Notes under the pieces: generated by a model | What the model saw: the letters and a program-made list of their open reading frames with translations, nothing else | Databases searched by the model: none | Told to the model about the DNA's origin: nothing | Shown here: piece by piece, positions 3,317-40,708 of the stretch | Layout: each line of letters starts with the position of its first letter | Numbering within the stretch: the first letter of the stretch is position 1 | Assembly (NCBI RefSeq): GCF_024102715.1 | Contig: NZ_JAGFJM010000133.1 | Coordinates: 1-40,708 of the forward strand | Source: Nitrosomonas communis | Lineage (GTDB): Bacteria > Pseudomonadota > Gammaproteobacteria > Burkholderiales > Nitrosomonadaceae | Direction of reading: 5' to 3' | DNA: 40,708 bases | Translations under genes and position numbers: made by a program

Positions 3317-3367
3317 GTTTGATTTATAATAATATGTGACGTGAAATAGCCATGATTCCTTTCTTTA

Positions 3368-5194
3368 TCAATGACCGGCGTACAGACGCTCAATTTCGGT
3401 CTGATAATGTTCCACAATCTTTGCCCGTTTCAATTTTAGCGTGGGTGTCAGCATTTCATTCGCAACAGTCCATGGTTCCGCAATCAAAGCGACTTGATAT
3501 ATTTTGGCATATCCCGGAAATTGATGGATTTGCTGGCTAATCATGTCTAACACAATCTCCTTTGCTTGCTCATTTTTTGCCAGTTGCGGCGGGTCCGCTG
3601 CTACCTGACACTGGACAGCGACACTTTCCCAGCCACGCTTGCTCAATACAACCAATGCGCTCAAATAAGAACGCCCTTCGCCCACGATCATGACTTGCTC
3701 GAACAACGGGTTTTGCAGAATAGCCGCTTCCATATCTGCAGGCGGCACCTTCTCACCGGTAGATGTCACGATAATGTCTTTCAGGCGGCCAGTAATCGTG
3801 ATTCGCCCCTGTTCATCGATACGGGCGATATCACCCGAATTCAACCAGCCATCATCGGAGATAATTGCTCGCGTGGCTTCTGGATTGTTCCAGTAACCAA
3901 GCATCACGTTAGGACCGCGAATCAATAAGGCATTATGTTCACCCAGTTTAACCTCCACACCCGGGATAGGCTGCCCTACACTGGATGGCAAATTATTATC
4001 GAGACGATTGGCACACACCACTGGACTGGTTTCAGTCATACCATAGCCTTGCAATATCGGCAATCCCAAACCAATGAATACGCGTGAAATTTCGGGTGAT
4101 AGTGCTGCACCCCCACTCATCGCCTGCTGTAAACGCCCCCCCAGTTTATCCATCAATTTACGCGCCACCAGCTTATCCAGCAGCGGCCACAATAAATGGG
4201 AAAAATGCCAGGAATCGCGCCCTTGTTGCTGCTCGAACCGGCTGTAACCCACTTCTACCGCTAAATTGAACAGTTTTCTGGCCAGGATCGACGCTTCTTC
4301 CAGTTTCGCGTTTATACCTGCATACACGCGTTCATAGATACGCGGCACGGAAATGAGTATGGTTGGACGAATCGTGAGCAGATCCTCTTGCAACTGCTGA
4401 ATCGAGCGAGCATAGGCGATGGTGGCACCACACATCATCGGCACATAGTAACCAGCGGTGCGTTCAAAAGTATGCGATAGCGGCAGAAACGAAAGCAGCA
4501 GATCAGCAGGTGTCACAGTTACAATCTGGGCAGAGGCATACGCATTAGTCAGAATATTGTGATGGCTGAGCATGACTCCTTTAGGGCGGCCTGTCGTGCC
4601 AGACGTATAAATGATGGTGGCGAGCGCATGCGGATCAGTATTCAGGTGCTGAGCTTCATTCGCCTGCTCCGGCAGCCACTTACTTAGCATAACGATGCGG
4701 TCATCTCGTGCGTGCACTGCTTCTTCCTCAGATAGAGTCATGATCACGATGCATGACAAACTGGTGAGCAGATCTTCGACTTGAGAAAACGCTTCCCATT
4801 GCGTTAGCTTTTCTATTAATAGCAGTTTGACTCCTGCATTCTGCAGGCAATAGGCTGCATTTTCGGCCCGATCTTCAGTATAAAGAGGCACAACCACCAA
4901 CCCTAACCCAATAGCTGCTTGCTCGAACATCACCCACTGCGGGCAATTTCTTGACATCACGGCAACCCGGTCACCAGCAGATAAATTTTCTTGTGACAGC
5001 GCAATCTGCCAGCGTGTTACTGCCTGCGCCATCTCCGCCCAGGTGTAATCACGCCATTGCTCAGTCGTCACCTCAAAATCGCGATAGGCCACTGATTGCG
5101 GAGAACGACGTACACGCTCTCTGAATAATCCATCCAGCGTTTTAGCCACTGCTACTGAAATCACATCTGTTTTGGTGTGCTGCTTGTCCGCCAC
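3368..5194 (-). CDS. Long-chain fatty acid--CoA ligase (AMP-dependent synthetase)
   Basis: A 608-residue ANL-superfamily enzyme that activates fatty acids to acyl-AMP and then acyl-CoA. The phosphate-binding motif IIYTSGTTGRPKGVMLSH spans residues 194-211. QGYGMTETSPVV is the adenine/acyl-AMP motif, and LNSGDIARIDEQGRITITGR followed by KDIIVTSTGEKV is the hinge region. The long insertions and C-terminal end (about 600 aa) match the FAA1/FadD15-type long-chain synthetases rather than short-chain enzymes. The gene starts 59 bases downstream of the fadE-like gene and precedes the YciA-like thioesterase, so the three probably form one operon for acyl-CoA metabolism. Chain-length preference cannot be told from sequence. 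Confidence 0.92.
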   Translation of the reverse strand: MADKQHTKTDVISVAVAKTLDGLFRERVRRSPQSVAYRDFEVTTEQWRDYTWAEMAQAVTRWQIALSQENLSAGDRVAVMSRNCPQWVMFEQAAIGLGLVVVPLYTEDRAENAAYCLQNAGVKLLLIEKLTQWEAFSQVEDLLTSLSCIVIMTLSEEEAVHARDDRIVMLSKWLPEQANEAQHLNTDPHALATIIYTSGTTGRPKGVMLSHHNILTNAYASAQIVTVTPADLLLSFLPLSHTFERTAGYYVPMMCGATIAYARSIQQLQEDLLTIRPTILISVPRIYERVYAGINAKLEEASILARKLFNLAVEVGYSRFEQQQGRDSWHFSHLLWPLLDKLVARKLMDKLGGRLQQAMSGGAALSPEISRVFIGLGLPILQGYGMTETSPVVCANRLDNNLPSSVGQPIPGVEVKLGEHNALLIRGPNVMLGYWNNPEATRAIISDDGWLNSGDIARIDEQGRITITGRLKDIIVTSTGEKVPPADMEAAILQNPLFEQVMIVGEGRSYLSALVVLSKRGWESVAVQCQVAADPPQLAKNEQAKEIVLDMISQQIHQFPGYAKIYQVALIAEPWTVANEMLTPTLKLKRAKIVEHYQTEIERLYAGH

Positions 5195-5253
5195 ATCTTC
5201 TCCTTGTCAAAATTGGCCATACTATTCGTAGAAATTCTGCCTGATTGCTCTTG

Positions 5254-7578
5254 CTAAGATGCCATACTCGCTGTTTTCCCAAAATCAGGTGAAAAATCAT
5301 CGACCATAATGACACGGCGGCGCAGAACTTTCATTTTTTCGAGCAACGCAACTTCCTCTTGGTTGATGATGCCGCACTGCAGTGCCTCAGTCACTTTTTC
5401 GTCATTGCGAGCAGTCAACTGGCCTGCCTTGACAGCATGACGTAATTTAGTCTCGATGGCTTCACAAACAACAGCGCATTCCATGGCCTGCTCCAGATAA
5501 GCTAATGGTTCATCATCATTATTTGGAATATAAATACCCGCTGTCAGCCGATCACGCACTTCCCCGGGTTCCAGGATCAAGCGGGCTACGGTATTTGAAA
5601 GTGCGTCGGCAGGCGGGACAAGGCGCATACCCAATGGAAATACGAGTATGCGCATCAAGCCACGCAGCAAAAAGTGCCCAGGGAAATTTCTCAGCAGTCC
5701 ATCAAAGGCTTGCTGAGTACGATAAAGCGCATCCTGTATCGACCAGTGTAACAATGGTAAATCTGCAGCGGGCCGTCCATCATCTTCAAAACGCTTGAGC
5801 GTTGCAGAGCATAAATACAGCATACTGAGTATATCGCCGAGTCTGGCGGATATTCTTTCCTTACGCTTGAGCGCCCCTCCTAATTTCAGCATGGCAATAT
5901 CGGTTAACAAAGCAAATGCGGCGGAAAAACGAGTCAATTGCCGATAATAATCGACGGTATCGCTCAGAATACCTTCTGGGATCTGTTTGATATTTTTGCT
6001 GCTTAGTCCGTACCAGAAGCTACGGCAAACATTGCGCAGACTGAAAGCGATATGCCCGATTAATGCCTGGTCAAATGCTACCAAAGCACGCTGCTTGTCT
6101 GAATCATTGGCTGCAGTGATTTCCTGCAAGACGTATGGATGACCTCGAATCGCACCCTGACCGAAAATAATCATGTTTCGCGTTAAAATATTGGCACCTT
6201 CCACCGTGATGCTCACGGGCATTTGTTGATAAGTACGGGCCAGATAATTGCTTGGTCCCATACAAATGCCTTTGCCGCCATGCACATCCATGGCGTCATT
6301 GACTAACTGGCGGCTACGCTCAGTCAAATGATATTTAACAATGGCTGAAATCACCGAAGGTTTTTCACCGAGGTCTACCGCACCTGCGGTCATGACTCTG
6401 GCAGCATCCATCATGTAAGTATTGCCGGCAATTCGTGCCAGTGCTTCCTCTACTCCTTCAAAAAAACCAATGGGTGTTTTAAATTGCACTCGCACCCTCC
6501 CATAAGCACCACTCGTGCGCGCCGCCAGTTTGGCTGCACCGGTTCCGGTAGCAGGCAGGGAAATTGAACGTCCTGCCGCCAAACAATTCATCAGCATCCG
6601 CCAGCCGTTACCCACGCCAGCACGCCCACCGATTACCCAGTCCATGGGAATGAATACATCAGTGCCAGAATTCGGGCCATTCTGGAATGCACCATTCAAC
6701 GGAAAATGACGACGGCCAATGTTCACACCGGGTGTATTGGTAGGAATTAATGCCAAGGTGATACCAAGATCTTCTTCGCCGCCAAGCAGTCTCTCCGGAT
6801 CGCGTAACCTGAATGCCAAACCCAGTATGGTCGCGACCGGCCCCAGCGTAATGTAACGTTTTTCCCAGGTAACACGCATACCGAGCACGTCATGCTGTCC
6901 GTCATGCTCACCTCGGCACACGATCCCCAGATCCGGTATTGATCCAGCATCAGAACCCGCATCAGGTCCTGTCAGAGCGAAACAAGGCACCTCCAATCCT
7001 TTTGCCAGGCGGGGCAGATAATGATTCTTCTGCTCTTCTGTTCCATAGTGCAGCAGTAGTTCAGCCGGTCCCAGCGAATTGGGCACCATGACCGTTACCG
7101 CTGCCGTATTACTGCGCGTGCTGATTTTCATCACCACCTCAGAATGCGCGAGCGCCGAGAATCCATAACCTCCATATTCCTTAGGAATAATCAAGCCGAA
7201 GAATCCGTTGTCCTTAATAAATTGCCAGGCTTGCGGCGGCAAATCATACCGTTCATGGGTAATATCCCATTCATCCAGCATCGCGCAGAGTTGCTCGACG
7301 GGCCCTTCCAGAAATGCCTTTTCCTCTGAACTAAGAACCGGTTTGGAATAAGCCAGCAATTTATGCCAATATGGCTTGCCGCTAAACAGCTCCCCCTCCC
7401 ACCACACCGTCCCTGCATCGAGTGCTTCCTGCTCAGTTTGTGAAATCTGAGGAAGAATTTTGCGGAAAATTTTCAGCACAAAATTAGAAAAAAGATAACG
7501 GCGCAAGAATGGAATCACCAGAATGGCCACCACGATCGCTATCAGCGAAAAAATAAGCAATAAAAAAGACAGGAGCAT
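5254..7578 (-). CDS. fadE: FadE-type acyl-CoA dehydrogenase, membrane-anchored
   Basis: A 774-residue flavoprotein of the large FadE class (E. coli FadE is about 814 aa), catalysing the first step of beta-oxidation: acyl-CoA to trans-2-enoyl-CoA. Residues 1-30 form an N-terminal hydrophobic segment (LLSFLLLIFSLIAIVVAIL) followed by basic residues, consistent with membrane anchoring. The FAD/substrate motif CFALTGPDAGSDAGS is present, then the C-terminal dehydrogenase domain with DVHGGKGICMGPSNYLAR and ITVEGANILTRNMIIFGQG (expected catalytic Glu region). A long C-terminal DUF1974-type extension follows. It leads the minus-strand fatty-acid module. The 217-base gap to the divergent MCE gene should hold its promoter. 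No other beta-oxidation genes (fadA, fadB) are in the window. Confidence 0.92.
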   Translation of the reverse strand: MLLSFLLLIFSLIAIVVAILVIPFLRRYLFSNFVLKIFRKILPQISQTEQEALDAGTVWWEGELFSGKPYWHKLLAYSKPVLSSEEKAFLEGPVEQLCAMLDEWDITHERYDLPPQAWQFIKDNGFFGLIIPKEYGGYGFSALAHSEVVMKISTRSNTAAVTVMVPNSLGPAELLLHYGTEEQKNHYLPRLAKGLEVPCFALTGPDAGSDAGSIPDLGIVCRGEHDGQHDVLGMRVTWEKRYITLGPVATILGLAFRLRDPERLLGGEEDLGITLALIPTNTPGVNIGRRHFPLNGAFQNGPNSGTDVFIPMDWVIGGRAGVGNGWRMLMNCLAAGRSISLPATGTGAAKLAARTSGAYGRVRVQFKTPIGFFEGVEEALARIAGNTYMMDAARVMTAGAVDLGEKPSVISAIVKYHLTERSRQLVNDAMDVHGGKGICMGPSNYLARTYQQMPVSITVEGANILTRNMIIFGQGAIRGHPYVLQEITAANDSDKQRALVAFDQALIGHIAFSLRNVCRSFWYGLSSKNIKQIPEGILSDTVDYYRQLTRFSAAFALLTDIAMLKLGGALKRKERISARLGDILSMLYLCSATLKRFEDDGRPAADLPLLHWSIQDALYRTQQAFDGLLRNFPGHFLLRGLMRILVFPLGMRLVPPADALSNTVARLILEPGEVRDRLTAGIYIPNNDDEPLAYLEQAMECAVVCEAIETKLRHAVKAGQLTARNDEKVTEALQCGIINQEEVALLEKMKVLRRRVIMVDDFSPDFGKTASMAS

Positions 7579-7795
7579 CGTTTTTCCTGTAAAAATTAAA
7601 ATTCTAACTACACTACCTTAGAAAACGCTTGTGTCAAGCCTTACTACACAGAAGTTTTCAATAGTTTATTAAAATTTTGTCGAGGTGTTGTAGAATCAAG
7701 CCAGACCATAAATATAAGTGTCGGTGTCTAACCCACCTTCTGACTTGGTGTCATAATAGCTACATCTATCAGCATTCATCTCTTTAGGATTGTAA

Positions 7796-8704
7796 ATGGA
7801 AAACCGGGCCCATGCGCTTGCAGCGGGTTTATTCGTAATTATTCTTGGCATGGCAGTAGCAGCCGCTGTCATATGGTTTAGTGACCAGAAAATCCTGCAC
7901 GATCACTATATCCTGGTATCGGAAGAGGGTTCCGTGGCAGGATTGAATCCCGAATCGTCAGTTCGCTATCGTGGTGTTCTTGTGGGCAAAGTCAAAGAAA
8001 TCAGGTTCGATCCGAAGAATCCAAACCTGATCCTGGTACATATTGCCGTGAGCAGTCATGTAACCTTCCCTAAAAACATCTATGCGCAGTTAGCCAATCA
8101 GGGATTAACCGGACTGGCCTTTATCGAATTAAATATCGATGGTAAAGAACCTGTGGACGAACGACTTCCTCCTGATACGCGTATCCCCTTGCACCCTTCT
8201 TTCATCAAAGAATTATCAACATCAGTCGAGGATTTAGTCAAAAATTCCAACGAAGCAATCAAACGCCTCAATGCCTTGTTGAACGACCAGAATCAGACCC
8301 AGATCAATACTATTCTGACAAACTTCGCGCAGGCTATCCGCCGTTACGATGGTTTGGTCGAGCAACTGCAAGCAGGTATCAAATCGTTCCCTAAGTTAAC
8401 TAACGAAGCGAACCTAACGCTGAAGCAGACGCATCATCTCCTGTCAGACATCAGCCAAGCTATAGCAACAATCAATCAACAGAATGGCCTGATAGATGGA
8501 TTGTCTCAAAGCAGCCACGAGCTTGCCGACACCCTGCCGAAATTACGGGAAGTGACCACCGCCATTGTGCAAAGCACCCACCATATCAATCGTGTACTGC
8601 TTAAGCTAGAAGAGCAGCCGCAAAGCTTGTTATTTGGTAGCTCCTCTGCCTCGCCTGGTCCTGGAGAAAACGGTTTTGTGCCACCTGGGAAAATCACACC
8701 ATGA
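7796..8704 (+). CDS. MCE/MlaD-family lipid-transport protein
   Basis: A 302-residue protein with one N-terminal transmembrane helix (about residues 8-28) and a periplasmic MCE domain (about 38-115: SVAGLNPESSVRYRGVLVGKV, then LANQGLTGLAFIELNI). The rest is a long helical coil ending in a Pro/Gly-rich tail. MCE proteins form hexameric rings that shuttle phospholipids between the inner and outer membrane, usually with an ABC permease (MlaE) and ATPase (MlaF). AGGA at 7786-7789 lies 6 bases before the ATG. The gene overlaps the next lipoprotein gene by 4 bases (ATGA), so the two are translationally coupled. No permease or ATPase is adjacent, which is unusual: this pair must use a transporter encoded elsewhere or act like the ABC-free Pqi/Let systems. 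Confidence 0.88.
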   Translation: MENRAHALAAGLFVIILGMAVAAAVIWFSDQKILHDHYILVSEEGSVAGLNPESSVRYRGVLVGKVKEIRFDPKNPNLILVHIAVSSHVTFPKNIYAQLANQGLTGLAFIELNIDGKEPVDERLPPDTRIPLHPSFIKELSTSVEDLVKNSNEAIKRLNALLNDQNQTQINTILTNFAQAIRRYDGLVEQLQAGIKSFPKLTNEANLTLKQTHHLLSDISQAIATINQQNGLIDGLSQSSHELADTLPKLREVTTAIVQSTHHINRVLLKLEEQPQSLLFGSSSASPGPGENGFVPPGKITP

Positions 8705-9387
8705 TCAAATTTGCCATTCTGATTCTGCTGTTGCTTGCTGGCTGTACCTTAACACCCAAAACGAATGCTCCGGTGGCCATCTATGATTTTGGCCTGCAAC
8801 CATCTACCGGACACAGCAGCTCACCTCCTTTTAACACGAGTATGCTGGTAGCAGACGTGACCGCTCCCATCTGGCTGGATAATCAAGCGATACAATATCG
8901 CCTCGCCTATCATGATCCGGCGCGTTCCTATGCCTATGCCAACAGTCGCTGGGCTGCTTCCCCCGCAAAAATGCTCACTCGGCGCATCAAGGACCATCTT
9001 GCTAATCATAGCCGCAGAGGTATCATCGGTAATCATGATGGTTTAAAGGCAGACTACGCTTTGCATATCGAACTGGAAGAATTTACTCAAGTGTTTGACC
9101 ATCCGGACGAAAGCCGAGTTATCCTCCGCCTGCGCGCAAGCCTGGTCGAACGCAGTAGACGCCAATTACTTGCGCAACAACAATTTACCAGCGAACAAAC
9201 CACCCCTACTGCAGATGCTGCCGGAGCAGTTGCTGCATTGATCGCGGCCAGTGATATGGTGTCGGACGACCTACTCAAATGGCTTAGAGATCATCTGGCA
9301 GAGAAACATGGCGGCAAGAATAATGACGTCAGTCACGTTTCGCTAGCTCGTTGTTGTGATAATATTCATCACTTCCTAATACTATAG
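8701..9387 (+). CDS. ABC-type transport auxiliary lipoprotein (PqiC-like)
   Basis: A 228-residue outer-membrane lipoprotein. The signal peptide ends in the lipobox LLLLAGC with lipidated Cys15. The body begins VAIYDFGLQPS, typical of the ABC-transport auxiliary component family, which includes PqiC and MCE-associated lipoproteins. The central part MLVADVTAPIWLDNQAIQYRL is the family's recognisable core. Its start overlaps the stop of the MCE gene (ATGA at 8701-8704). These lipoproteins normally pair with MCE rings and provide the outer-membrane end of the lipid path. The C-terminal 20 residues (SHVSLARCCDNIHHFLIL) look unlike the family and may be a neutral read-through extension. Confidence 0.85.
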   Translation: MIKFAILILLLLAGCTLTPKTNAPVAIYDFGLQPSTGHSSSPPFNTSMLVADVTAPIWLDNQAIQYRLAYHDPARSYAYANSRWAASPAKMLTRRIKDHLANHSRRGIIGNHDGLKADYALHIELEEFTQVFDHPDESRVILRLRASLVERSRRQLLAQQQFTSEQTTPTADAAGAVAALIAASDMVSDDLLKWLRDHLAEKHGGKNNDVSHVSLARCCDNIHHFLIL

Positions 9388-9394
9388 ACATCAC

Positions 9395-9529
9395 GTGCGC
9401 CTACTTTATCTTACTGTTTTACTGTCTGTCGGGCTGACTGCCTGCGGTCTAAAAGCACCGCTCTATCTGCCGCATGAAACACCACCGCCGCCACAACCAT
9501 CTCAGGATGATGAACGAATAAAGCAATGA
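9395..9529 (+). CDS. lptM: LptM (YifL-type) small lipoprotein
   Basis: A 44-residue lipoprotein starting with GTG at 9395. The signal peptide ends LTACGLKAPLYLP, the diagnostic LptM/YifL motif (LTGCGxKGPLY in relatives), with lipidated Cys17, followed by a short Pro-rich tail. In E. coli LptM binds the LptD/LptE lipopolysaccharide translocon and promotes its maturation. Its stop overlaps the lysA start (ATGA at 9526-9529), the arrangement common in beta- and gammaproteobacteria. No strong Shine-Dalgarno precedes the GTG, and no better in-frame start is seen. Identity is strongly supported by motif plus position despite the short length. Confidence 0.88.
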   Translation: MRLLYLTVLLSVGLTACGLKAPLYLPHETPPPPQPSQDDERIKQ

Positions 9530-10779
9530 GCGGATTTATATCATTTGCGTATCAACACGATCAGCTTTTCGCTGAATCGGTTTCTTTGATCGATATTGCC
9601 AACGAATTCGGCACTCCCTGCTATGTATATTCGCGCGCAGCGCTAACTGCTGCTTATCAGGAATTCAGTCGCGCCTTCGCCGGTCGTGATCATCTCATCT
9701 GCTACGCGGTCAAAGCCAACTCAAATCTAGCCATTCTCAATGTGCTTGCCCGTCTGGGCAGTGGCTTCGATATCGTTTCAGGCGGCGAGTTACAGCGGGT
9801 ACTGAAAGCTGGTGGCAATCCCAGGAAAATCGTGTTTTCGGGTGTGGGAAAAAATCAGGAAGAAATGCGCGCAGCGTTGGCTGCCGATATTCTCTGCTTC
9901 AATATCGAATCAGAAATGGAATTGTTGCGTCTTAACCAGATTGCGCAAGAGATGAACAAAGTTGCACCGGTAAGCCTGCGAGTCAATCCTGATGTCGACG
10001 CTAAAACTCACCCTTATATCTCAACAGGTCTTAAGGAAAACAAATTCGGTATTCCTATGGCTGAGGCGGAACGTATCTATCATGCAGCACGTGAGCTGAG
10101 CCATGTTCATATCACCGGCCTGGATTGCCATATCGGTTCGCAGCTGACTGAAATTGATCCGTTCATTGAAGCCAGTAATAAGATGCTTAATTTACTGGAT
10201 CGTCTGGAAAGTCAGGGATTACATATTGCGCATCTCGATTTGGGAGGTGGTCTGGGTATACGCTATAACCAGGAATCGCCGCCATCAATCAAAGATTATG
10301 TGGCGGCACTATGCGTCACTGTAGGACAAAGGAAGCAGCGCATCCTCATTGAACCTGGCCGCTCGTTGGTCGGTAATACAGGTCTATTACTGACTCGTGT
10401 CGAATACCTTAAGCATGCGCCCCACCGGAATTTTGCCATTGTAGACGCGGCAATGAACGACTTGATGCGTCCAGCGCTATATGATGCCTACCATGAGATC
10501 CTGCCAGTCATTAAAAAGGCAGGTGCTGTTAGTACTTATCAGGTGGTGGGGCCTGTCTGTGAAACAGGTGATTTCATTGGGCACGACCGCAAACTAACCT
10601 TGGCAAAAGATGACTTGCTTGCTGTCATGTCGGCAGGTGCTTATGGAATGAGCATGAGCTCGAATTATAATACTCGCCCCCGTGCAGCAGAGGTTATGGT
10701 GGACGGCGACACTGTCCATTTGATTCGCGCCCGTGAAACAATAGAGCAGCTGATTGCTTCTGAAAAGGTGCTGGACTGA
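9526..10779 (+). CDS. lysA: Diaminopimelate decarboxylase
   Basis: A 417-residue PLP enzyme of fold type III that decarboxylates meso-diaminopimelate to L-lysine, the last step of lysine synthesis. CYAVKANSN carries the PLP-binding Lys63. Other family landmarks are HIGSQLTEIDPF, the phosphate-binding LGGGLGIRY, EPGRSLVGNTG, and GPVCETGDFIG with the dimer-contributed active-site Cys. Length is normal for proteobacterial LysA (about 415-420). The start overlaps lptM by 4 bases, giving translational coupling. The usual dapF partner is not next to it; a squalene synthase follows after 66 bases. Confidence 0.96.
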   Translation: MSGFISFAYQHDQLFAESVSLIDIANEFGTPCYVYSRAALTAAYQEFSRAFAGRDHLICYAVKANSNLAILNVLARLGSGFDIVSGGELQRVLKAGGNPRKIVFSGVGKNQEEMRAALAADILCFNIESEMELLRLNQIAQEMNKVAPVSLRVNPDVDAKTHPYISTGLKENKFGIPMAEAERIYHAARELSHVHITGLDCHIGSQLTEIDPFIEASNKMLNLLDRLESQGLHIAHLDLGGGLGIRYNQESPPSIKDYVAALCVTVGQRKQRILIEPGRSLVGNTGLLLTRVEYLKHAPHRNFAIVDAAMNDLMRPALYDAYHEILPVIKKAGAVSTYQVVGPVCETGDFIGHDRKLTLAKDDLLAVMSAGAYGMSMSSNYNTRPRAAEVMVDGDTVHLIRARETIEQLIASEKVLD

Positions 10780-10845
10780 AATCGGCTATGGATCAAGCTC
10801 AGTAAATCCTCATTATTTGCTCCAGTCCGCTGCATTGATTGATTT

Positions 10846-11913
10846 ATGACAACTTATACCATGACCCGCCCTGCCAGTATTGAAGACAACCACTATCAGG
10901 AGCATATCCTGCAGGGCGTTTCACGCACTTTTGCACTGACGATCCCACAGCTCCCACTCCCGCTCTATCAAGTCATCGGCAATGCCTATTTACTGTGCCG
11001 TATTGTGGATACGGTGGAAGACGATAACGGTTTATCCTCCGAACAAACCCGCAAGTTCGCCGAAATGTTTATCCAGGTCGTCAGTGGCAATGTTGCTGCC
11101 GAATCATTTGCAGAAGCATTATTTCCACTGCTTTCTAACCACACCATTCCTGCCGAGCATGACCTGATCAAGAATACGCCCGCAGTAATCCGCATTACGC
11201 ATAGCTTCAACCCCACCCAGCGCAGGGCATTAGAACGTTGTGTCCGTATCATGGGACAAGGCATGGCAGATTATCAGGAAAGCGAGTCGCTGGCTGGATT
11301 AAAGGATTTAGCAGCCCTTGATCAGTACTGTTACCATGTAGCCGGCGTTGTAGGTGAAATGTTGACCGAATTGTTCTGCGATTATTCGGAAGAGATCAAT
11401 CGCTACAAGCCCACTCTCATGAAATTGGCTGTTTCATTTGGTCAAGGTCTGCAAATGACCAATATCTTGAAAGATATCTGGGAAGATAGAAAGCGTGGCG
11501 CATGCTGGTTGCCACAAGACATTTTCCGGAAAAAAGGATTTGATCTCACTGATTTGCAGGCAGGGCATGCTGACCCTCGATTTCATGAAGGCCTTGGCAT
11601 ATTGATTGGCATTGCCAAGGCTCATTTGCGCAATGCACTCACTTATACCTGCATGATCCCCCCGCAGGAAAAAGGCATCCGTCGCTTCTGCCTTTGGGCG
11701 CTGGGCATGGCCGTGCTGACGCTGAATAAAATCAACCGAAACCGTTCTTTCAGTCAAGGAACTCAAGTCAAGATTTCCCGACTGAGTGTCAAAGCAACTG
11801 TTCTCGTTACCAGCACTTTGGTCAGTCAGGACTGGGCATTACGGCGCATGTTTACATTCGCCTCCCGGCACCTTCCCGAAATGGATATTTTAGGCAATGA
11901 AATATCGTTCTAA
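10846..11913 (+). CDS. Squalene synthase (farnesyl-diphosphate farnesyltransferase type)
   Basis: A 355-residue all-helical trans-isoprenyl synthase. Both Asp-rich Mg2+-binding motifs are present: DTVED at residues 55-59 and DIWED at 210-214 within LQMTNILKDIWEDRKRG. The N-terminal VSRTFALTIPQLP is also typical. The length and these details fit the single-enzyme squalene synthase (eukaryote-like SQS, two FPP plus NADPH to squalene) better than the shorter HpnC/HpnD proteins (about 280 aa). The C-terminal hydrophobic membrane tail of eukaryotic SQS is not evident. Squalene would feed hopanoid synthesis, supported by the hpnA gene 39 bases downstream. Phytoene synthase is a less likely alternative. 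Confidence 0.87.
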   Translation: MTTYTMTRPASIEDNHYQEHILQGVSRTFALTIPQLPLPLYQVIGNAYLLCRIVDTVEDDNGLSSEQTRKFAEMFIQVVSGNVAAESFAEALFPLLSNHTIPAEHDLIKNTPAVIRITHSFNPTQRRALERCVRIMGQGMADYQESESLAGLKDLAALDQYCYHVAGVVGEMLTELFCDYSEEINRYKPTLMKLAVSFGQGLQMTNILKDIWEDRKRGACWLPQDIFRKKGFDLTDLQAGHADPRFHEGLGILIGIAKAHLRNALTYTCMIPPQEKGIRRFCLWALGMAVLTLNKINRNRSFSQGTQVKISRLSVKATVLVTSTLVSQDWALRRMFTFASRHLPEMDILGNEISF

Positions 11914-11952
11914 ACTATACTATTAACTTCATTTTTGCTTATAACCACCATC

Positions 11953-12939
11953 ATGAAATCTCTGGTAACTGGTGCAAATGGTTTCGTTGGTTCAGCAGTG
12001 GTAAGGTGCTTACTGACCGCCGGTCATGAAGTACGTGCATTCGTCAGACGGGGAGGTGATCAGCGCAATCTCACCAAACTCCCTATTGAGACTGTGGAAG
12101 GCGATCTGCGCGATATCACCTCCATAAAACGTGCAGTAACAGGCTGCAACAACCTGTTCCATGTGGCAGCTGATTACCGTCTGTGGGTACCTAATCCAGC
12201 CATCATGTATGACGTGAATGTCAACGGCACCAAAGCATTAATCCTCGCTGGCGCAGAAGTGGGCATAAATCGCATGGTTTATACCAGCAGTGTTGCCACC
12301 CTGGGACTGAACTCAAACAGCTTACCTGCTGATGAAGAGACGCCTTCCAGTCTGGCGACGATAGCCGGACACTATAAACGCTCAAAATTTCTAGCAGAAC
12401 AAGCTGTACAAGCACTTGTGCGTGAACATCAATTGCCATTGGTGACGGTCAATCCATCTACACCAATTGGTCCGCGCGATGTCAAACCCACCCCCACAGG
12501 ACGTATCGTGCTCGACACGCTGCGTGGCAAAATGCCAGCCTATGTCGATACCGGATTAAATGTCGCTCATGTCGATGACATTGCTTATGGTCACCTGCTC
12601 GCATATCAGCATGGAAAGCCGGGCGAACGTTATATCCTGGGTGGCGACGACATGACATTGCTGCAAATACTTCAGACGATAGACGACATCACCGGCAAGC
12701 CTACCAAGCGCAGAAGCATCCCAGTCAAACTGATGTTGCCGATCGCGCATACCATGGAGATCGTTGCCAGAATTACCAAAACCGAACCCCGTGCCACCGT
12801 GGCCAGTATCCATATGGCCAAAAAGAAAATGTTTTTTACCAGTGCTAAAGCGGTGCGGGAATTGGGTTATCAGCCCCGGCCCGCTGTAGAAGCAATTAAA
12901 GATGCCATCGACTGGTTTAGAAGTGCTAATTATTGTTAG
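11953..12939 (+). CDS. hpnA: Hopanoid-associated sugar epimerase HpnA (extended SDR)
   Basis: A 328-residue NAD-dependent epimerase/dehydratase-like protein. The Rossmann motif VTGANGFVGSAVV is right at the N-terminus, with a DVNVNGTKALILAG segment, and HYKRSKFLAEQA supplies the YxxxK catalytic pair. VNPSTPIGPRDVKPTPTGRIV is highly characteristic of HpnA. In hopanoid producers it sits with squalene/hopene genes and is thought to act in hopanoid side-chain formation; its exact reaction is not settled. An upstream TTG at 11935 would add six residues before the Rossmann strand, so the ATG at 11953 is chosen. It ends 34 bases before the convergent RNA methyltransferase. Confidence 0.9.
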   Translation: MKSLVTGANGFVGSAVVRCLLTAGHEVRAFVRRGGDQRNLTKLPIETVEGDLRDITSIKRAVTGCNNLFHVAADYRLWVPNPAIMYDVNVNGTKALILAGAEVGINRMVYTSSVATLGLNSNSLPADEETPSSLATIAGHYKRSKFLAEQAVQALVREHQLPLVTVNPSTPIGPRDVKPTPTGRIVLDTLRGKMPAYVDTGLNVAHVDDIAYGHLLAYQHGKPGERYILGGDDMTLLQILQTIDDITGKPTKRRSIPVKLMLPIAHTMEIVARITKTEPRATVASIHMAKKKMFFTSAKAVRELGYQPRPAVEAIKDAIDWFRSANYC

Positions 12940-34629: not shown

Positions 34630-36474
34630 TTAAGGTTGATAACGTAACGTAGCGAAGAAATTACGCCCCGGCTGGTTGAAAAAAGCTGCCGTCTCATAGT
34701 GTTCGTTAAACAGATTCTCGATACGTCCCAGTAAACGCCAGTGTTTGCTCAGTATATATTCAGCGCGAAGATCAAGTTTTACATAGCTGTCAAGCCTGCG
34801 TGTATTGGCCAGATCATCAAAACGTTCACCTTCAGCCAGAAACATGGCCCCTACCCTGTATCGACCAAACTGGCGATCGATATCTAAACGAAATGACTGC
34901 TCTGCCCGTCTAGGCAATAGTTTACCCTTATCAGGGCCAGATGAGCGATTTTCAGGGTCCAGAAAAGTCAGATTGCCATTTAATTGCCAGCCTTTGATCT
35001 GAGTGCTGATAACAGCTTCCAGGCCACGAATACGCGCCTCATTGATATTAGCCGGGGCCAGAATGCTGGCGTCAAACGCAATCAGCTCATCAATGCGGGT
35101 TTCATACACATTCAGCGCCCAGCTACCCCAATCAACATTACCGCGTGCGCCAAATTCAAAACTGCGCGACTCTTCCGGGCGCAGATTGGCATTGCCAAAC
35201 CCTGGAAAATAAAGCTCATTAAAGGTAGGCGCTTTAAACGCACTGCCAAAACTGGCCATCAAACGTATCCTGTCAGTAATGGCATAACCCCAGCCAGCCC
35301 CTCCTGTGACGCGACTGCCAAATTGCTGATTGTCATCATGCCGCAGCGATAACTGCACGCTATGGGCAGCCAACACCGCCTGATGCTGCGCGAAAACGCC
35401 CCAATTGTTGCGTGAGGTCACGGCGAATGCATCTGTGCTGTTGACATGATCATGCTGATAATCCGTACCTACTGAAAGCTGATGATACTGATTGAGCGTG
35501 AAATCATTTTGCCAGGTAACAGTGTCACGCTGCGTATTGAAGCGAGTCATAAAAACTTTGTTCAAGTAATTATCCGAATTATCCCGGCTACGGCCTGCAA
35601 TCAGGTTTATGCGCCAGAAATCAAATGGTGAAAAGCGCGCTGAACCGCCGAGAACTTGTTGCGCCATGACGGATTTGTTGACAAAACTGCCGTCAAACTC
35701 CGTTTTGCCCGCTGAATGCATAAAATTACCCTCGATTTCCAGTCCATTCTGGAAGCGATAACCGGCACGGGCGGAGCCGGCCACATTGCGATAACCATCC
35801 CGATCGGGTTCATGGGTAAAACAGCCGGCAGTATCCGAGCCGCTACAAGCATTAAAACCGCTTGTACCGATACCGCTTACTGTCATATTGAACCAACCCT
35901 GCTGACCGCCACCCGAAAGTCCGACCGAGCCATTGAGCGTACTATAGCTACCACCACCAAAACTAAAGCTCGGCTTAATCCCCTCACCCACACCCTTGCG
36001 GGTAAAAATCTGGATCACGCCGCCGATTGCTTCCGAACCATACAAACTGGAACGCGGCCCGCGCACAATTTCAATACGCTCAATCTGCTCAATGGGGATA
36101 TTTTCAAATGCAGTCGTGCCTGAAGTGGCCGATCCTGCCTTGATGCCGTCGATCAATACCAGCACATGATCAGATTCAGTGCCGCGCATATGCACAAAAG
36201 TGCCTTTACCCGGACCGCCATTATTATTGACATTAATGCCCAGCACGCCACGGAACAAATCATCGAGTGATCTTGCCTGCTGGCGCTCTATCTCCTTGCG
36301 CGAGATGACAGTCACCGAAGCAAGCGATTCTTCTGCCGTCTGTGCAGTGCGCGTAGCGGTGACGATAATAGGCTTTCCTTGATGATCTATATTTTCAGCG
36401 AAGACAGCGGTAGCTGCAGTCGTAACTGCAGCGAGCCATAGCCCTGTCATTGCCGCTAACCGGCATTTTTGCAT
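34630..36474 (-). CDS. btuB: TonB-dependent outer-membrane vitamin B12 receptor
   Basis: A 614-residue TonB-dependent barrel. The signal peptide (residues 1-26, ending AVFA) is followed by a TonB box region PIIVTATR (about 35-42), then the plug domain with ARSLDDLFRGVLGINVNNNGGPGKGTFVHMRG and RIEIVRGPRSSLYGSEAIGGVIQIFTRKG. The beta-barrel ends in the typical aromatic C-terminus FFATLRYQP. Size equals E. coli BtuB (about 614 aa). It is the first gene after the B12 riboswitch, which confirms corrinoid substrate. GGAGGA at 36482-36487 (minus) is 7 bases from the ATG. Confidence 0.95.
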   Translation of the reverse strand: MQKCRLAAMTGLWLAAVTTAATAVFAENIDHQGKPIIVTATRTAQTAEESLASVTVISRKEIERQQARSLDDLFRGVLGINVNNNGGPGKGTFVHMRGTESDHVLVLIDGIKAGSATSGTTAFENIPIEQIERIEIVRGPRSSLYGSEAIGGVIQIFTRKGVGEGIKPSFSFGGGSYSTLNGSVGLSGGGQQGWFNMTVSGIGTSGFNACSGSDTAGCFTHEPDRDGYRNVAGSARAGYRFQNGLEIEGNFMHSAGKTEFDGSFVNKSVMAQQVLGGSARFSPFDFWRINLIAGRSRDNSDNYLNKVFMTRFNTQRDTVTWQNDFTLNQYHQLSVGTDYQHDHVNSTDAFAVTSRNNWGVFAQHQAVLAAHSVQLSLRHDDNQQFGSRVTGGAGWGYAITDRIRLMASFGSAFKAPTFNELYFPGFGNANLRPEESRSFEFGARGNVDWGSWALNVYETRIDELIAFDASILAPANINEARIRGLEAVISTQIKGWQLNGNLTFLDPENRSSGPDKGKLLPRRAEQSFRLDIDRQFGRYRVGAMFLAEGERFDDLANTRRLDSYVKLDLRAEYILSKHWRLLGRIENLFNEHYETAAFFNQPGRNFFATLRYQP

Positions 36475-36557: not shown

Positions 36558-36607
36558 AGCTTTAATAAAAGCTAATCAGAATGCCGGTTATTGCCCTCCG
36601 CAATAAC
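36558..36607 (-). promoter_or_regulatory. Two hairpins in the riboswitch-btuB leader (candidate expression platform)
   Basis: On the minus strand, just after the B12 aptamer, GTTATTGC and GCAATAAC pair across five bases (36587-36607). Next, AGCTTT/AAAGCT pair across four bases (36558-36573), with flanking GAT/ATC extending the stem. Neither is followed by a long T-run, so classical intrinsic termination is not clear. They may be part of the switching structure. Confidence 0.4.
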
Positions 36608-36617
36608 GTATTACTTA

Positions 36618-36812
36618 CTTCAGGCCGGTCTCCGGACTCATGAGCGGAATTCATTCCAGATCCACGCCTTCCCATGTCATCACACAGTGGCATCATGCAG
36701 ATCGTTAACTCATTTACCGTTGCGGGGGCAGTGCCGGCTTTGTCTGAATCAAATCAGAACGCACCAGCTTCCCGTTTAACCTTCAAGGCAAAAACCAGGA
36801 AGGCACCTGAGG
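36618..36812 (-). ncRNA. Cobalamin (B12) riboswitch aptamer
   Basis: On the minus strand the conserved AdoCbl aptamer elements occur in order: GGGAAGCTGGTG, then CACTGCCCCCGCAACGGTAA, then GCCACTG, ATGGGAAGGCG, and the B12 box GAGTCCGGAGACCGGCCTG (about 36621-36639). Closing helix P1 is formed by CCTCAGG (36806-36812) with CCTGAAG (36618-36624), six of seven pairs. It lies between a good promoter and btuB and should repress btuB, and probably the whole cob operon, when adenosylcobalamin is abundant. Confidence 0.95.
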
Positions 36813-36824
36813 TAAAAGGCGCGC

Positions 36825-36853
36825 AGACTACAGAATTAGAAAATGAGTGTCAA
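36825..36853 (-). promoter_or_regulatory. Sigma-70 promoter of the riboswitch/btuB/cob operon
   Basis: On the minus strand TTGACA (36848-36853), a perfect -35 box, is followed after exactly 17 bases by TAGTCT (36825-36830), an acceptable -10. Transcription would start near 36818, just before helix P1 of the riboswitch at 36812, giving a leader of about 340 bases. The fit with the aptamer edge makes the assignment convincing. Confidence 0.7.
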
Positions 36854-37016: not shown

Positions 37017-37073
37017 ATGCAGCTTGTCGTTATGTACTCTAATAAAGAAGTAATGATTTATGAGGACTGCTAA
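37017..37073 (+). CDS. Short leader ORF overlapping the antitoxin start (18 aa)
   Basis: ATG at 37017 has a strong AGAAGGAGA ribosome-binding site at 37004-37012. The frame encodes 18 residues (MQLVVMYSNKEVMIYEDC) and stops at 37071-37073, overlapping the antitoxin ATG at 37060 in another frame. The antitoxin has no good ribosome-binding site of its own. Translation of this leader could therefore deliver ribosomes to the antitoxin start by coupling. It may also be the remnant of a longer gene. Confidence 0.4.
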   Translation: MQLVVMYSNKEVMIYEDC

Positions 37074-37248
37074 AGAAGAAGTAAAAGCGCTCCTGGATAA
37101 ACTCCCTGACAATTGTTCATTGGAAGATGTCCAGTATCATCTGTACGTCGTGGAGAAAATCCACAGGGGTATCGAACGCGCCGAAAAGGAAGGAACCCTT
37201 AGCCAGGATGAGGTTGAAAAGAAACTCAGCAAATGGCTCTCGAAGTAA
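37060..37248 (+). CDS. Type II antitoxin of a ParE/RelE-type module
   Basis: A 62-residue helical, charged protein (KEEVKALLDKLPDNCSLEDVQYHLYVVEKIHRG, then a C-terminal EKKLSKWLSK). This pattern, a DLPD...SLEDIQYH core and a KWL tail, is familiar from small antitoxins encoded directly before ParE-like toxins. It has no recognisable DNA-binding motif of its own. The following toxin ORF starts inside its last codons (ATG at 37233), the normal overlap for this kind of pair. The ATG lacks a good Shine-Dalgarno. Since the toxin is broken, this is probably an orphaned antitoxin. Confidence 0.75.
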   Translation: MRTAKEEVKALLDKLPDNCSLEDVQYHLYVVEKIHRGIERAEKEGTLSQDEVEKKLSKWLSK

Positions 37249-37394
37249 AGTGGTCGCCGGAAGCAACCGAAGACCTTGAAGCTATCGCCGAATCAAAAAA
37301 ACAAGAACGACGATTGGGACTATTGTTCGCAAGAACAAGAATTCTTGATTATGGACTTGATCCCGATGTGGTGCACAGATTATTGAGCCCGTAG
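37233..37394 (+). pseudogene. Truncated ParE-like toxin
   Basis: The frame from ATG 37233 begins MALEVKWSPEATEDLEAIAE, a clear ParE/RelE-family start (first strand and helix). After residue 20 the similarity ends: the rest (SKKQERRLGLL to VVHRLLSP) does not resemble the family, and the ORF stops at 53 residues instead of about 95-100. The YI(A/S)xDSPxxA segment and the C-terminal strands with the active-site Arg are absent in all three forward frames nearby. A deletion or replacement rather than a simple frameshift is therefore likely. ParE toxins poison gyrase; this copy should be inactive. Confidence 0.65.
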
Positions 37395-37821
37395 CGTCGC
37401 CGAAGGCTCTTGTGGTTGTTCAGTTAGTGTATTGATTGCGCTGGGATATTTGAGGATTACAGAAATTTTGAATTAGTATGACCAAAGTACGATTTCAATC
37501 TGGCTAAGGTAATAAGAAAATTAATCGACTAGATAACTATTATTTGTTATTTCAAGAAAAATTTTGTGATTTTTAGCAATTTGTTAAAGATATTAAATTT
37601 AGCTGAATCACAGGCTAGTTTGTTTATGTTTTATTAAAAGTTAAGACACACTCAATACTAGGTATTGATGCTCTGCTCTTTTTAGTAAAAGTTTATATAG
37701 ATGTCAATTAAAACGCAAAGACCATAGCCACTAATGCAGATAGCATGTTGGAAGAAAGTTTTTATAACAACATTTTGCCCTCATCTTTTCATTTTGCATC
37801 TTTAGGTAAGGCGGGCAGATA
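37395..37821. other. AT-rich gene-free gap before the helicase operon
   Basis: 427 bases without a credible gene on either strand, strongly AT-rich, with many T-runs and A-runs. It contains the perfect inverted repeat at 37652-37668 and a TATATA at 37694-37699 that may be part of a promoter for the 449-aa protein, though no well-spaced -35 was found. No tRNA or attachment site was recognised. Confidence 0.5.
37652..37668 (+). promoter_or_regulatory. Perfect 7+3+7 inverted repeat, candidate operator
   Basis: TCAATAC at 37652-37658 and GTATTGA at 37662-37668 are perfect inverted copies separated by TAG. It lies about 150 bases upstream of the 449-aa gene and just before a TATATA box. The form is that of a dimeric-repressor site. 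No regulator gene is seen in the window, so the binding protein is unknown. It has no following T-run and is not a convincing terminator. Confidence 0.4.
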
Positions 37822-39171
37822 ATGTATGAGTTGATTAAAAAAATTAAAGCTTTTAGCACTCTGATTTTAGAGATAGGATTTTACAAAGCTTTCACAAAGC
37901 CTTTCAGCAATGAAGATGCTGAATACATGAATGAGGTTCATCAAAGGAAATTAAATCATCGAGTGTATGATGATTCAGTAATAGATGATAAGAAACAGCA
38001 GAATATTTCCTCCTTAATTACTACTCCCGTAAATTATATTCCTCCTAATAATGATTCTGTATTTAAGCAAGAATCTGCGCATAGTAATTCAAATGTAAAT
38101 CAAGAAACTCAAAATTTAATTGACACCGAAGAAGTGAATGTACTTTCGGTTAACGGTAGCACCTCAATTAAGCACACAGAATTAGACGAGTTTTCTTCCA
38201 GCTCGGACAAATTCATCAATAATGAATCTATGGAATTAGTGGTAGATGATCTACTTACTAATGAAGATAGTTTTGTTGAGCATGTATTGGTGAGGAATAT
38301 TTCGACAACTCTTCCTCAACCAATTTTAACTGGCTTTTTCGAAAACCCAGATCTAGAAGATTTTCCTGTTATATCGAACGAAGATGAATGGTTTACTCCA
38401 GATATTATCGATACAGCTAATGAGGAAGATATTTGGGAAGAAAGTCTTCTCCCCTCTGTCGCAATTGAAGCTCCACCAACTAGACATGAACTTTTTAACT
38501 TGCCAGATCGACTGACTCGTGCTGAGAGAGCATTACAAATTGCTATTAGAGTTGGTGATGAGTTTGATTGGGACAGAAATGGCATTAAGATACTTGCCAC
38601 TATATTTAATCGATATTGGTGGTCTTCTTCACAGACCGCTATGCGGCGAGCAATTGAATCAGGCATGATTCCGAAAGAGTTAATATTGGCTGAGGAATTG
38701 CGCCAGATGTGGTATGAACACCCAGATTTTTGGTCTGCCATGAATAAGTCCGGAGAAATTTGTCATCAATACTCACTAATTAGTTGGCCTACGGCATTAA
38801 AAATAATTCGCAGCTTTAATAGCTATCCTCAAATTGAAGAGGTAGAAGCACTTCTTAACGAATGCCTTGAGCGCTGGCTATGTTCCTCCAGCTTACAGCA
38901 TAGATTCAAAGGATTTTATATGTATGTTTTGTATCGCGTAGGGGCATATGATGATCTTACAGATCATGAAGGTTGGATAATCTTCGACCACTATCCGACA
39001 GATGAAACTGAATTTGCAGATGATCTAGAGCAACCAAGAAGACTCCGCGACCTAGGAGTATATATAGATCCCCAAGCGGAACGTTATGCAACAAGTAGTT
39101 GGGATGGCCGTTTAATGTTGCGAAATGCTCGTCATGGACATGAATTATATGACGAAGAAAACAGTCTGTAA
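37822..39171 (+). CDS. Unrecognised 449-aa protein, acidic disordered N-terminus and folded C-terminal half
   Basis: No family is recognised. Residues 1-30 form a hydrophobic/basic segment (YELIKKIKAFSTLILEIGFYKAF) that could be an amphipathic helix. Residues 40-215 are rich in Asn, Ser, Asp and Glu, low in structure and strongly acidic. From about 216 (PTRHELFNLPDRLTRAERALQIA) to the end the sequence looks folded and mostly helical, rich in Trp, Tyr and Arg (NRYWWSSSQTAMRRAIESG, ELRQMWYEHPDFWSAM, LQHRFKGFYMYVLYRVGAYDDL). There are no transmembrane segments in the C-terminal half and no nuclease or methylase motif seen. It ends 26 bases before the SNF2 helicase gene, so the two form an operon and probably act together. 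Codon use is AT-rich, unlike the core genes. Confidence 0.75.
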   Translation: MYELIKKIKAFSTLILEIGFYKAFTKPFSNEDAEYMNEVHQRKLNHRVYDDSVIDDKKQQNISSLITTPVNYIPPNNDSVFKQESAHSNSNVNQETQNLIDTEEVNVLSVNGSTSIKHTELDEFSSSSDKFINNESMELVVDDLLTNEDSFVEHVLVRNISTTLPQPILTGFFENPDLEDFPVISNEDEWFTPDIIDTANEEDIWEESLLPSVAIEAPPTRHELFNLPDRLTRAERALQIAIRVGDEFDWDRNGIKILATIFNRYWWSSSQTAMRRAIESGMIPKELILAEELRQMWYEHPDFWSAMNKSGEICHQYSLISWPTALKIIRSFNSYPQIEEVEALLNECLERWLCSSSLQHRFKGFYMYVLYRVGAYDDLTDHEGWIIFDHYPTDETEFADDLEQPRRLRDLGVYIDPQAERYATSSWDGRLMLRNARHGHELYDEENSL

Positions 39172-39197
39172 GATGAGCTATTGGATAGGAGAGATTA

Positions 39198-40628
39198 GTG
39201 CTTATACCGGTCGTAGGATGTCTGGTCAAACAAATTGAAAATGATCAGATACGGGGAGAAGTTAAAAGTCATGAAGAAAATGAAGATTCCATACATGTTT
39301 CCGTGCAGTGGTTCGGCAAGAAAAATCTCGAATCGATTAAACTAGAAAAGCTTACCTCTGGTTTCGGACTTGGCGCCACAGTGCAAGATTTACCTAGATC
39401 CCGAACACGGCAATCTCTCGGAGTAGGTGAAGTGGTTGAAACACGTCAAATAGGTGGGCGATGCCAACACCTTATTGAATTCCCAGATATCAGTGAGCGT
39501 GTCTGGCTACCCTATGAAAATTTGCGATTTGTTCGTGGTGCACGTCAGCGTTTTTTATTGGGGCAACTCGGTTACTCTAGCCATGCAGAACGGTTCAGAC
39601 TCCGAGCTTTAGCATATGCCATCGAAACTTGGCATGAAAATACTGGTGCATTATCGCGGCTAAACATCGATCCTCTACCTCACCAGATTCATCTTGTACA
39701 TCATATCTTAAAATCTGGAAATCTAAATTGGCTGATTGCAGATGACGTAGGCTTAGGCAAGACCATTGAAGCTGGCATGCTTCTATCTGCACTAAAGCAG
39801 CGAGGTAATTTCAAACGGGTATTGTTGATTACACCTGCAGGCTTGGTCAAACAATGGAAGGAAGAAATGCATCACAAGTTTGGACTATCTGACTTCCGTA
39901 TTTATGGTGAAGATTTCTTCATCAATGAAGAGCGTGAATGGAAGCTTTATGATCACATAATAGGATCACTTGACAAATTCAAACAAGAAGATCATCTGAA
40001 TAAATTAATGCAATCGGGTCAATGGGATATTATCGTATTCGATGAAGCCCATCGATTAAGTCGTTCACAATATGGAATGAAGTTTGAATCCAGTGATCGA
40101 TTCAAGCTTGCCAGAAAACTTCGTGGACTAACTGATTCCATGCTGCTTCTTTCTGCAACACCACATCAGGGAAAGCAAGATAAATTTCAGGCGCTATTGG
40201 AATTAATTCGTCCGGAATGGCGTGAGCGGATTCAGTGGCTTTCTTTAGACCCTTCTATTTTAGCCAGCATGGTTATTCGCAATAATAAAGCTGATGTGAC
40301 AGACGCGGAAGGGAATTTTATTTTTAATGGCAAGATTACTAAAACCATCCCTGTTCGGATAGGTAATGAAGAACAAGAATTCGATCAAGCACTGCAAAAA
40401 TATCTCAAACTCGGCTATGCCGCAGGGAGGGTAACTTCTGGCACTACTGGTCGAGCAATCGGGTTCGTGATGACGGTATACCGCAAACTCGCCGCATCAA
40501 GCGTTGCCGCTATTGAAGCAGCACTTGTTCGGCGTATGTTGCGTCTGAAAGCAGAGAATGATTTAATGCAGATACAGACTCAGAAACTGTTTGGAAACTC
40601 CTGTTTTAAGCTAGTCTCCTCAACATAA
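39198..40628 (+). CDS. 5' remnant of a SNF2/RapA-like helicase (DrmD-like), truncated by an IS element
   Basis: The 476-residue frame holds two N-terminal Tudor/SH3-like beta domains (about 1-55 and 75-115, ending RVWLPYENLRFV), as in RapA. The first RecA lobe of a SNF2 ATPase follows: PHQIHLVHHIL (Q motif), DDVGLGKTIEAG at 182-193 (Walker A), LLITPAGLVKQWKEE (Ia), DEAH at 282-285 and LLSATPHQGKQDKFQALLELI (III). The second lobe with motifs V and VI is missing. The last residues are encoded by an IS5-family end, so native coding stops near 40590. DISARM DrmD helicases share this DDVGLGKT...SATPH...KF pattern, but RapA-like helicases do too. GTG at 39198 has AGGAGAG at 39187-39193. Full-length relatives are about 950-1100 aa; this copy cannot be an active translocase. 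Confidence 0.85.
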   Translation: MLIPVVGCLVKQIENDQIRGEVKSHEENEDSIHVSVQWFGKKNLESIKLEKLTSGFGLGATVQDLPRSRTRQSLGVGEVVETRQIGGRCQHLIEFPDISERVWLPYENLRFVRGARQRFLLGQLGYSSHAERFRLRALAYAIETWHENTGALSRLNIDPLPHQIHLVHHILKSGNLNWLIADDVGLGKTIEAGMLLSALKQRGNFKRVLLITPAGLVKQWKEEMHHKFGLSDFRIYGEDFFINEEREWKLYDHIIGSLDKFKQEDHLNKLMQSGQWDIIVFDEAHRLSRSQYGMKFESSDRFKLARKLRGLTDSMLLLSATPHQGKQDKFQALLELIRPEWRERIQWLSLDPSILASMVIRNNKADVTDAEGNFIFNGKITKTIPVRIGNEEQEFDQALQKYLKLGYAAGRVTSGTTGRAIGFVMTVYRKLAASSVAAIEAALVRRMLRLKAENDLMQIQTQKLFGNSCFKLVSST

Positions 40629-40708
40629 TACGAATCATAGCGATGTAAACCCAAGTTTCGTCGGTACGCATGAGACGTTCGTAGCTTTTACTGAGTCGAC
40701 GTGAATGA
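40592..40708 (-). mobile_element. End of an IS5-family insertion sequence (runs off the right edge)
   Basis: The transposase frame on the minus strand ends at 40606, and the element should end a few bases beyond it, about 40590-40600, near GGAAACTCCTG. This interrupts the helicase frame. Only the transposase C-terminus is in the window, so the other inverted repeat and target duplication cannot be seen; the left boundary is approximate. Confidence 0.75.
40606..40708 (-). CDS. IS5-family transposase, C-terminal fragment (partial)
   Basis: Reading the minus strand from the right edge gives 33 residues ending at TAA (40606-40608): SRRLSKSYERL followed by TWVYIAMIRIMLRRLA. The pattern RRLSKxYE...AMIRLMLRRLA is the characteristic C-terminus of IS5-family DDE transposases. 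It includes the region after the last catalytic Glu; the catalytic core is outside the window. The orientation opposes the helicase. The frame is intact in the part seen, so the element may be recent. Confidence 0.85.
   Translation of the reverse strand, partial: HSRRLSKSYERLMRTDETWVYIAMIRIMLRRLA

What the first reader, a model, noticed from the sequence alone, without database searches (positions are those of the whole stretch)
37822..40628. Operon of an unrecognised 449-aa acidic protein and a SNF2/RapA-like helicase: candidate undescribed two-gene system
The two genes are 26 bases apart, AT-rich compared with the core, and lie next to a toxin-antitoxin remnant and an IS. The helicase has Tudor-like domains and a DrmD-like first motor lobe. 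I see no DISARM partner (drmA, drmB, drmC, methylase), so if this is defence it is not a standard DISARM. The 449-aa protein, with a long acidic disordered arm and a Trp/Tyr-rich helical C-terminus, could be a DNA-mimicking or adaptor partner; this is inference. Intact homologous pairs elsewhere would define the system.
Basis: partly seen in the sequence, partly recalled or inferred. Interest (0 to 1): 0.72.

Follow-up and report, generated by a model that had tools for sequence, protein, structure and literature searches.

The report
New helicase-plus-partner pair, candidate defence
Two neighbouring bacterial genes, a DNA-tracking motor protein and an acidic partner with a domain of unknown shape, turn out to travel together in many distant bacteria, often near known anti-virus genes, and probably form an undescribed two-gene defence system that is broken in this particular genome.

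Summary
A 449-aa acidic ORF lies 26 nt before a SNF2/RapA-type helicase. This helicase copy is broken: IS sequence begins at 40582 and the 3' half lies on another contig. Intact pairs exist elsewhere. Of 58 helicases with 41% identity or more, 57 have a homologue of the 449-aa protein directly upstream (the exception is cut by a contig end); of 22 more distant ones none does. Searching from the partner, 6 of 6 other genomes with it have the helicase next door. Sampled helicases form one clade, apart from RapA, BrxHII, HmaA and DrmD-like rows. The partner's conserved C-terminal domain is predicted with confidence as all-helical, without a significant PDB match; the acidic arm before it is a family trait (43 of 55 partners; 0 of 2025 control windows). 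Restriction or other defence genes lie near the pair in 26 of 60 loci. Best reading: an undescribed two-gene defence module in which the partner regulates a RapA-like translocase. Defence and mechanism are inferred, not shown.

The parts
37822..39171 (+). Partner gene, 449 aa: N-terminal part plus long acidic, probably disordered arm, then a conserved helical C-terminal domain
   Evidence: ORF; homologue directly before the helicase in 60 of 61 family loci (57 of 58 genome loci plus 3 of 3 plasmids); no known family for the window protein
37822..38430 (+). Codons 1-203: variable N-terminal part and acidic arm (31 D+E against 4 K+R in residues 60-215)
   Evidence: acidic arm in 43 of 55 relatives
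38428..39168 (+). C-terminal helical domain (profile match 38482-39075); Trp 322 and 352 invariant, Trp 297 nearly so
   Evidence: alignments; model, core pLDDT 88-98
39187..39192 (+). AGGAGA ribosome-binding-like motif before the helicase GTG
   Evidence: sequence
39198..40581 (+). 5' part of the RapA-type SNF2 helicase gene: N-terminal beta (Tudor-like) domains and the first motor lobe; interrupted
   Evidence: domain layout from the model of relative L034; remaining half at G000:C91:4627-6087
40582..40708 (.). End of an insertion sequence that breaks the helicase gene
   Evidence: recurs at six other places in the genome at 79-100% identity; 15-nt inverted terminal sequence on both sides of the break

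Best explanation
The pair is a (here broken) copy of a mobile, undescribed two-gene module, most likely an antiviral or anti-plasmid defence system. Shown: strict linkage and order, a helicase clade of its own, intact motor motifs in relatives, partner architecture (variable N-terminus, acidic arm, orphan helical C-terminal domain), and restriction or other defence genes near many members. Inferred: the partner's C-terminal domain docks on the helicase; the acidic arm, DNA-like in charge, keeps the motor off DNA until the variable N-terminus (tetratricopeptide-like in at least 13 of 59 members) senses something of the invader; the freed RapA-like translocase then runs on double-stranded DNA and strips or stalls the invader's transcription or replication machinery. 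No nuclease-type motif is conserved in the helicase C-terminus, so I expect a block rather than cutting, unless a neighbouring nuclease is recruited.
Against: No experiment. PADLOC tallies count families, not genes; the control genes come from other genomes of the window's genus; the eight clusters were chosen after clustering, and only one member of each was scanned. 34 of 60 loci hold none of them in the DNA held. Co-variation by helicase region showed no preferred contact (partial correlations -0.13 to 0.19). No match in 50,697 phage records, which is neutral. The two Deinococcus partners lack the acidic arm, and 12 of 55 partners fall below the threshold. TPR matches are weak (best 1.7e-6), so a sensor role is a guess.
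Confidence: 0.55

Rival explanations
1. The pair is an accessory of neighbouring restriction-modification systems (a type III-like methylase plus ResIII helicase directly downstream in some loci), not a system of its own.
For: Cluster c2 (N6/N4 methylase) in 9 and c4 (ResIII) in 7 of the 61 loci clustered, often directly downstream; HsdM cluster in 8.
Against: No cluster besides the pair occurs in more than 9 of 61 loci. Only 17 of 55 downstream neighbours (two of them split pieces of the helicase itself) and 18 of 53 upstream neighbours are on the same strand within 100 nt, and they belong to mixed families.
Confidence: 0.15
2. Toxin-antitoxin-like arrangement: the helicase is toxic by itself and the acidic first-gene product neutralises it; activity is released when the partner is lost or degraded. 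This would be one way of doing defence or of addicting a plasmid.
For: Order (acidic gene first), 4-nt overlap in 14 of 60, strict pairing, plasmid carriage in three loci.
Against: The partner is long with variable N-termini, up to 1300 aa, unlike a simple antitoxin; no toxicity data.
Confidence: 0.15
3. A horizontally spread RNA-polymerase-associated factor, a RapA paralogue with an acidic cofactor, that affects host transcription and has no defence role.
For: Structural similarity to RapA over nearly the whole length.
Against: RapA NCBIfam model scores 163-201 bits against a cut-off of 576 in the five helicases scanned; E. coli RapA falls outside the clade (on a very long branch); patchy distribution (5 of 369 and 3 of 398 genomes, own included); defence-type flanks.
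Confidence: 0.1
4. The acidic partner is an anti-restriction (DNA-mimic) protein carried by mobile elements, with the helicase as a helper in transfer or repair.
For: Acidic arm, plasmid loci, ParB/KorB-type gene near L021.
Against: Several loci lie on contigs of 0.5-5.3 Mb and so are probably chromosomal (L038, L039, L045, L061, L063, L074, L076), some beside restriction genes, an odd place for an anti-restriction gene; the helical domain is better conserved than the arm.
Confidence: 0.05

Closest known systems
RapA (RNA-polymerase-recycling Swi2/Snf2 ATPase)
   Same: Domain order in the model: N-terminal beta (Tudor-like) domains, SNF2 motor, C-terminal alpha+beta region
   Different: Low sequence similarity, below the family cut-off; outside the clade; partner gene in 60 of 61 loci; patchy, partly plasmid-borne
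BrxHII (type 3 BREX) and ArmA (ARMADA)
   Same: RapA-like defence helicase; BrxHII is described as about 940 residues, Tudor + Swi2/Snf2 + degenerate nuclease-like fold + alpha+beta (PMC12839542 passages); ArmA as BrxHII-like (PMC12458937 passages)
   Different: 321 and 342.5 bits on the PADLOC BrxHI|BrxHII model against 1635.8 for the genome's own BrxHII; separate clade. I did not scan the whole window or every flank for PglX, PglZ, BrxC or YprA-like genes; no such cluster recurs in more than 3 of 61 loci as far as representatives were scanned
HmaA / DUF499-centred BREX-related systems
   Same: Nearest helicases by sequence outside the family, 29-39% identity; three of the 22 tested are true HmaA by PADLOC
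   Different: The two plasmid loci inspected sit with an annotated DUF499 gene, one also with a DUF1156 gene (DUF499 systems: PMC12839542 section 28); the 29-36% set is 1092-1365 aa where complete; no partner homologue
DISARM DrmD
   Same: Best NCBIfam model for the motor
   Different: 315-330 bits against a cut-off of 610 in five full-length relatives

Membership tests
DISARM (DrmD) | Helicase reaches the curated DrmD score | tested here: not met
   315.5-330.3 bits in five full-length relatives, cut-off 610; window part 184.5
DISARM (DrmD) | Neighbouring drmA, drmB, drmC or methylase genes | not tested
   ORFs beside the window pair and on C91 were listed but not scanned for these; in flanks of relatives only samples were scanned
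Type 3 BREX (BrxHII) | Helicase close to BrxHII | tested here: not met
   321 and 342.5 bits against 1635.8 for a true BrxHII in the same genome; separate clade
Hma / DUF499-centred BREX-related | Helicase close to HmaA | tested here: not met
   296 and 251 bits against 1237-1421 for three HmaA proteins
Hma / DUF499-centred BREX-related | DUF499 ATPase and N6-methylase in the operon | tested here: inconclusive
   No DUF499 among the 25 Pfam families shown (of 93) for 100 of 187 eligible flank genes; N6/N4 methylase cluster in 9 of 61 loci
RapA | Reaches the curated RapA score | tested here: not met
   163-201 bits, cut-off 576
RapA | Binds RNA polymerase | not testable with these tools
   -
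Dpd (DpdE) | Reaches the curated DpdE score | tested here: not met
   198-230 bits, cut-off 500
Antiviral defence system | Restriction or other defence genes lie near many members | tested here: met
   26 of 60 loci; 144 against 34 PADLOC families; with the limits stated
Antiviral defence system | Protects cells against phage | not testable with these tools
   -

The most novel reading that the evidence does not exclude
A new class of two-gene immune system in which a RapA-type double-stranded-DNA translocase is held in check by a partner that combines an interchangeable sensor, a DNA-like acidic arm and a helicase-docking domain of a fold not yet seen, and which defends without a nuclease or methylase by clearing protein machinery from invading DNA.
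Probability: 0.3. Interest if true: 0.82.

Novelty: new variant of a known kind. Interest (0 to 1): 0.68.

Why it matters
RapA-like helicases recur in several large defence systems (BREX type 3, DISARM, Hma, ARMADA), where many partners hide what the helicase itself does. A minimal two-gene form, with a partner family that a profile can recognise, gives a tractable way to ask how this helicase class is restrained and what it does to invading DNA. It also supplies a domain of unknown fold and a marker for a candidate defence family seen here in records named as Gamma-, Alpha-, Beta- and Deltaproteobacteria, one Flavobacteriaceae MAG and Deinococcus plasmids.

Full report
What is there. The window holds a 449-aa ORF at 37822-39171 and, 26 nt on, a GTG-started ORF at 39198-40628 on the same strand. 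The second is the front half of a SNF2-type helicase. It does not end naturally: window bases 40582-40708 recur at six other places in the same genome at 79-100% identity, a 15-nt sequence stands in opposite orientation on both sides of the break, and the rest of the helicase lies at C91:4627-6087. The assembly does not itself join C31 to C91, so a rearrangement through IS copies is also possible; either way this copy is interrupted. Both genes are AT-rich for the window and show dN/dS well below 1 against the nearest relative, L021, whose pair is intact: partner 430 aa, helicase 936 aa.

Is the pair real? A tblastn of the 449-aa protein against 72,556 plasmid records gave three matches, all to its C-terminal part, in Nitrosococcus halophilus and two Deinococcus species, and in all three the next gene downstream is a full-length helicase. 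In the same collection the helicase front half matched 246 records; the three best (54-63% identity) are exactly these three, the next is at 34%. A scan of a collection of 84,980 species genomes with the helicase alignment found 131 relatives, of which the best 80 were kept. An iterated profile of the partner's C-terminal domain found a partner ORF directly before the helicase in 57 of the 58 loci with 41% identity or more, and in none of the 22 with 29-36%, of which 4 hold under 1 kb of upstream DNA; the one miss, L031, begins at the contig edge just before the helicase. None of 62 viral-contig loci has it; they hold only distant helicases, 39% at best, and 8 hold under 1 kb upstream. In a relaxed search the weakest family member scores 1.9e-16 and the next ORF 0.2. 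In the opposite direction, a partner-domain search of 369 genomes of the class and 398 of the phylum found it in 5 and 3 genomes (the window's own in both); all 6 other genomes have a full helicase next to it. Two of these six repeat loci already held (L032, L054). A search of 198 other relatives of the window's genome with the whole window protein found no homologue.

Kinship. In three trees the family rows form one side of a branch with support 99-100, apart from HmaA, DUF499-context and similar, DrmD-like and BrxHII rows and, in the last, E. coli RapA. RapA and BrxHII are long branches whose own places are unsure. The row I first called RapA (L180) is an unidentified SNF2 protein. The family tree mixes phyla, as expected of horizontal spread. 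Curated models agree: DrmD 315-330 bits of 610 needed, RapA 163-201 of 576, DpdE 198-230 of 500 in five helicases; BrxHII model 321-343 bits against 1636 for the true BrxHII in this genome, HmaA model 251-296 against 1237-1421 for true HmaA, two family helicases scanned. Five of five partners matched no NCBIfam model at 1e-10; in PADLOC one of 59 partners had one match, E=0.009.

How it might work. My best reading is a two-gene defence module: the helical domain docks on the helicase, the acidic arm acts as a stand-in for DNA that keeps the motor idle, the variable front part senses the invader, and the released translocase clears or blocks protein machinery on invading DNA. The pairing, architecture and surroundings are shown; docking, arm function, sensing and defence are inferred. 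The per-region co-variation test gave no support for any particular contact. Rivals are an accessory of restriction systems, a toxin-antitoxin-like pair, a transcription factor, and an anti-restriction protein.

What is known. Recent comparative papers describe RapA-like helicases in type 3 BREX, DUF499-centred systems and ARMADA. I saw the abstract, outline, section 28 and passages of PMC12839542 and passages of PMC12458937; none of what I read describes this pair. Six answered searches of the paper library found no description; the other papers in them I saw only as listings.

Verdict. Because the motor belongs to a known class of defence helicases, I rate it as a new variant of a known kind.

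Noticed in passing
window 36606-36825 (-): Cobalamin riboswitch (Rfam RF00174, 115.8 bits) upstream of the TonB-receptor-like ORF 34630-36474 (-), the latter label recalled from its sequence, not scanned.
   Followed up: yes
window 37060-37400: Small antitoxin-like ORF (62 aa) followed by what looks like a broken ParE/RelE-type toxin reading frame; no Pfam or NCBIfam match to the 62-aa ORF, so the label rests on my reading of the sequence.
   Followed up: partly
L179 (G000:C80) 3098-12918: The same genome carries genes of a type 3 BREX system: PglXI, BrxHII and PglZ matches over the full models.
   Followed up: partly
L045 13505-16988; L068 4679-8511; L069 4709-8511: A second, apparently unrelated gene pair (about 700-830 aa and 443-455 aa) sits near the helicase pair in three loci; weak PADLOC matches for the first and none for the second in the one locus scanned (L045).
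   Followed up: no
L067-L069, upstream of the partner: MkoA-like (Mokosh) gene cluster upstream of the pair in three alphaproteobacterial loci; one member scanned (L068), fragments only in L067.
   Followed up: no
L007 10593-14540; L008 10566-14468: In Deinococcus the partner is about 1300 aa, with a long variable and Pro-rich front part instead of the acidic arm.
   Followed up: no
L037 9361-14673; L041 6606-13060: A second SNF2 helicase (DrmD-like by PADLOC in L037) followed by a gene of the cluster whose scanned member (L063) is type IIG restriction-methylase-like, lies a few kb downstream of the pair.
   Followed up: partly
L021 419-1474: ParB/KorB-type protein on the 10-kb contig with the closest intact pair, suggesting a plasmid or integrative element; the contig is filed under a Cytophagales MAG although its helicase is 89% identical to the window's.
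   Followed up: no
L180 3163-6021 (G000:C11): A 952-aa SNF2 protein of the same genome that begins almost directly with the motor and matches RapA only over its first lobe; its family was not identified.
   Followed up: partly
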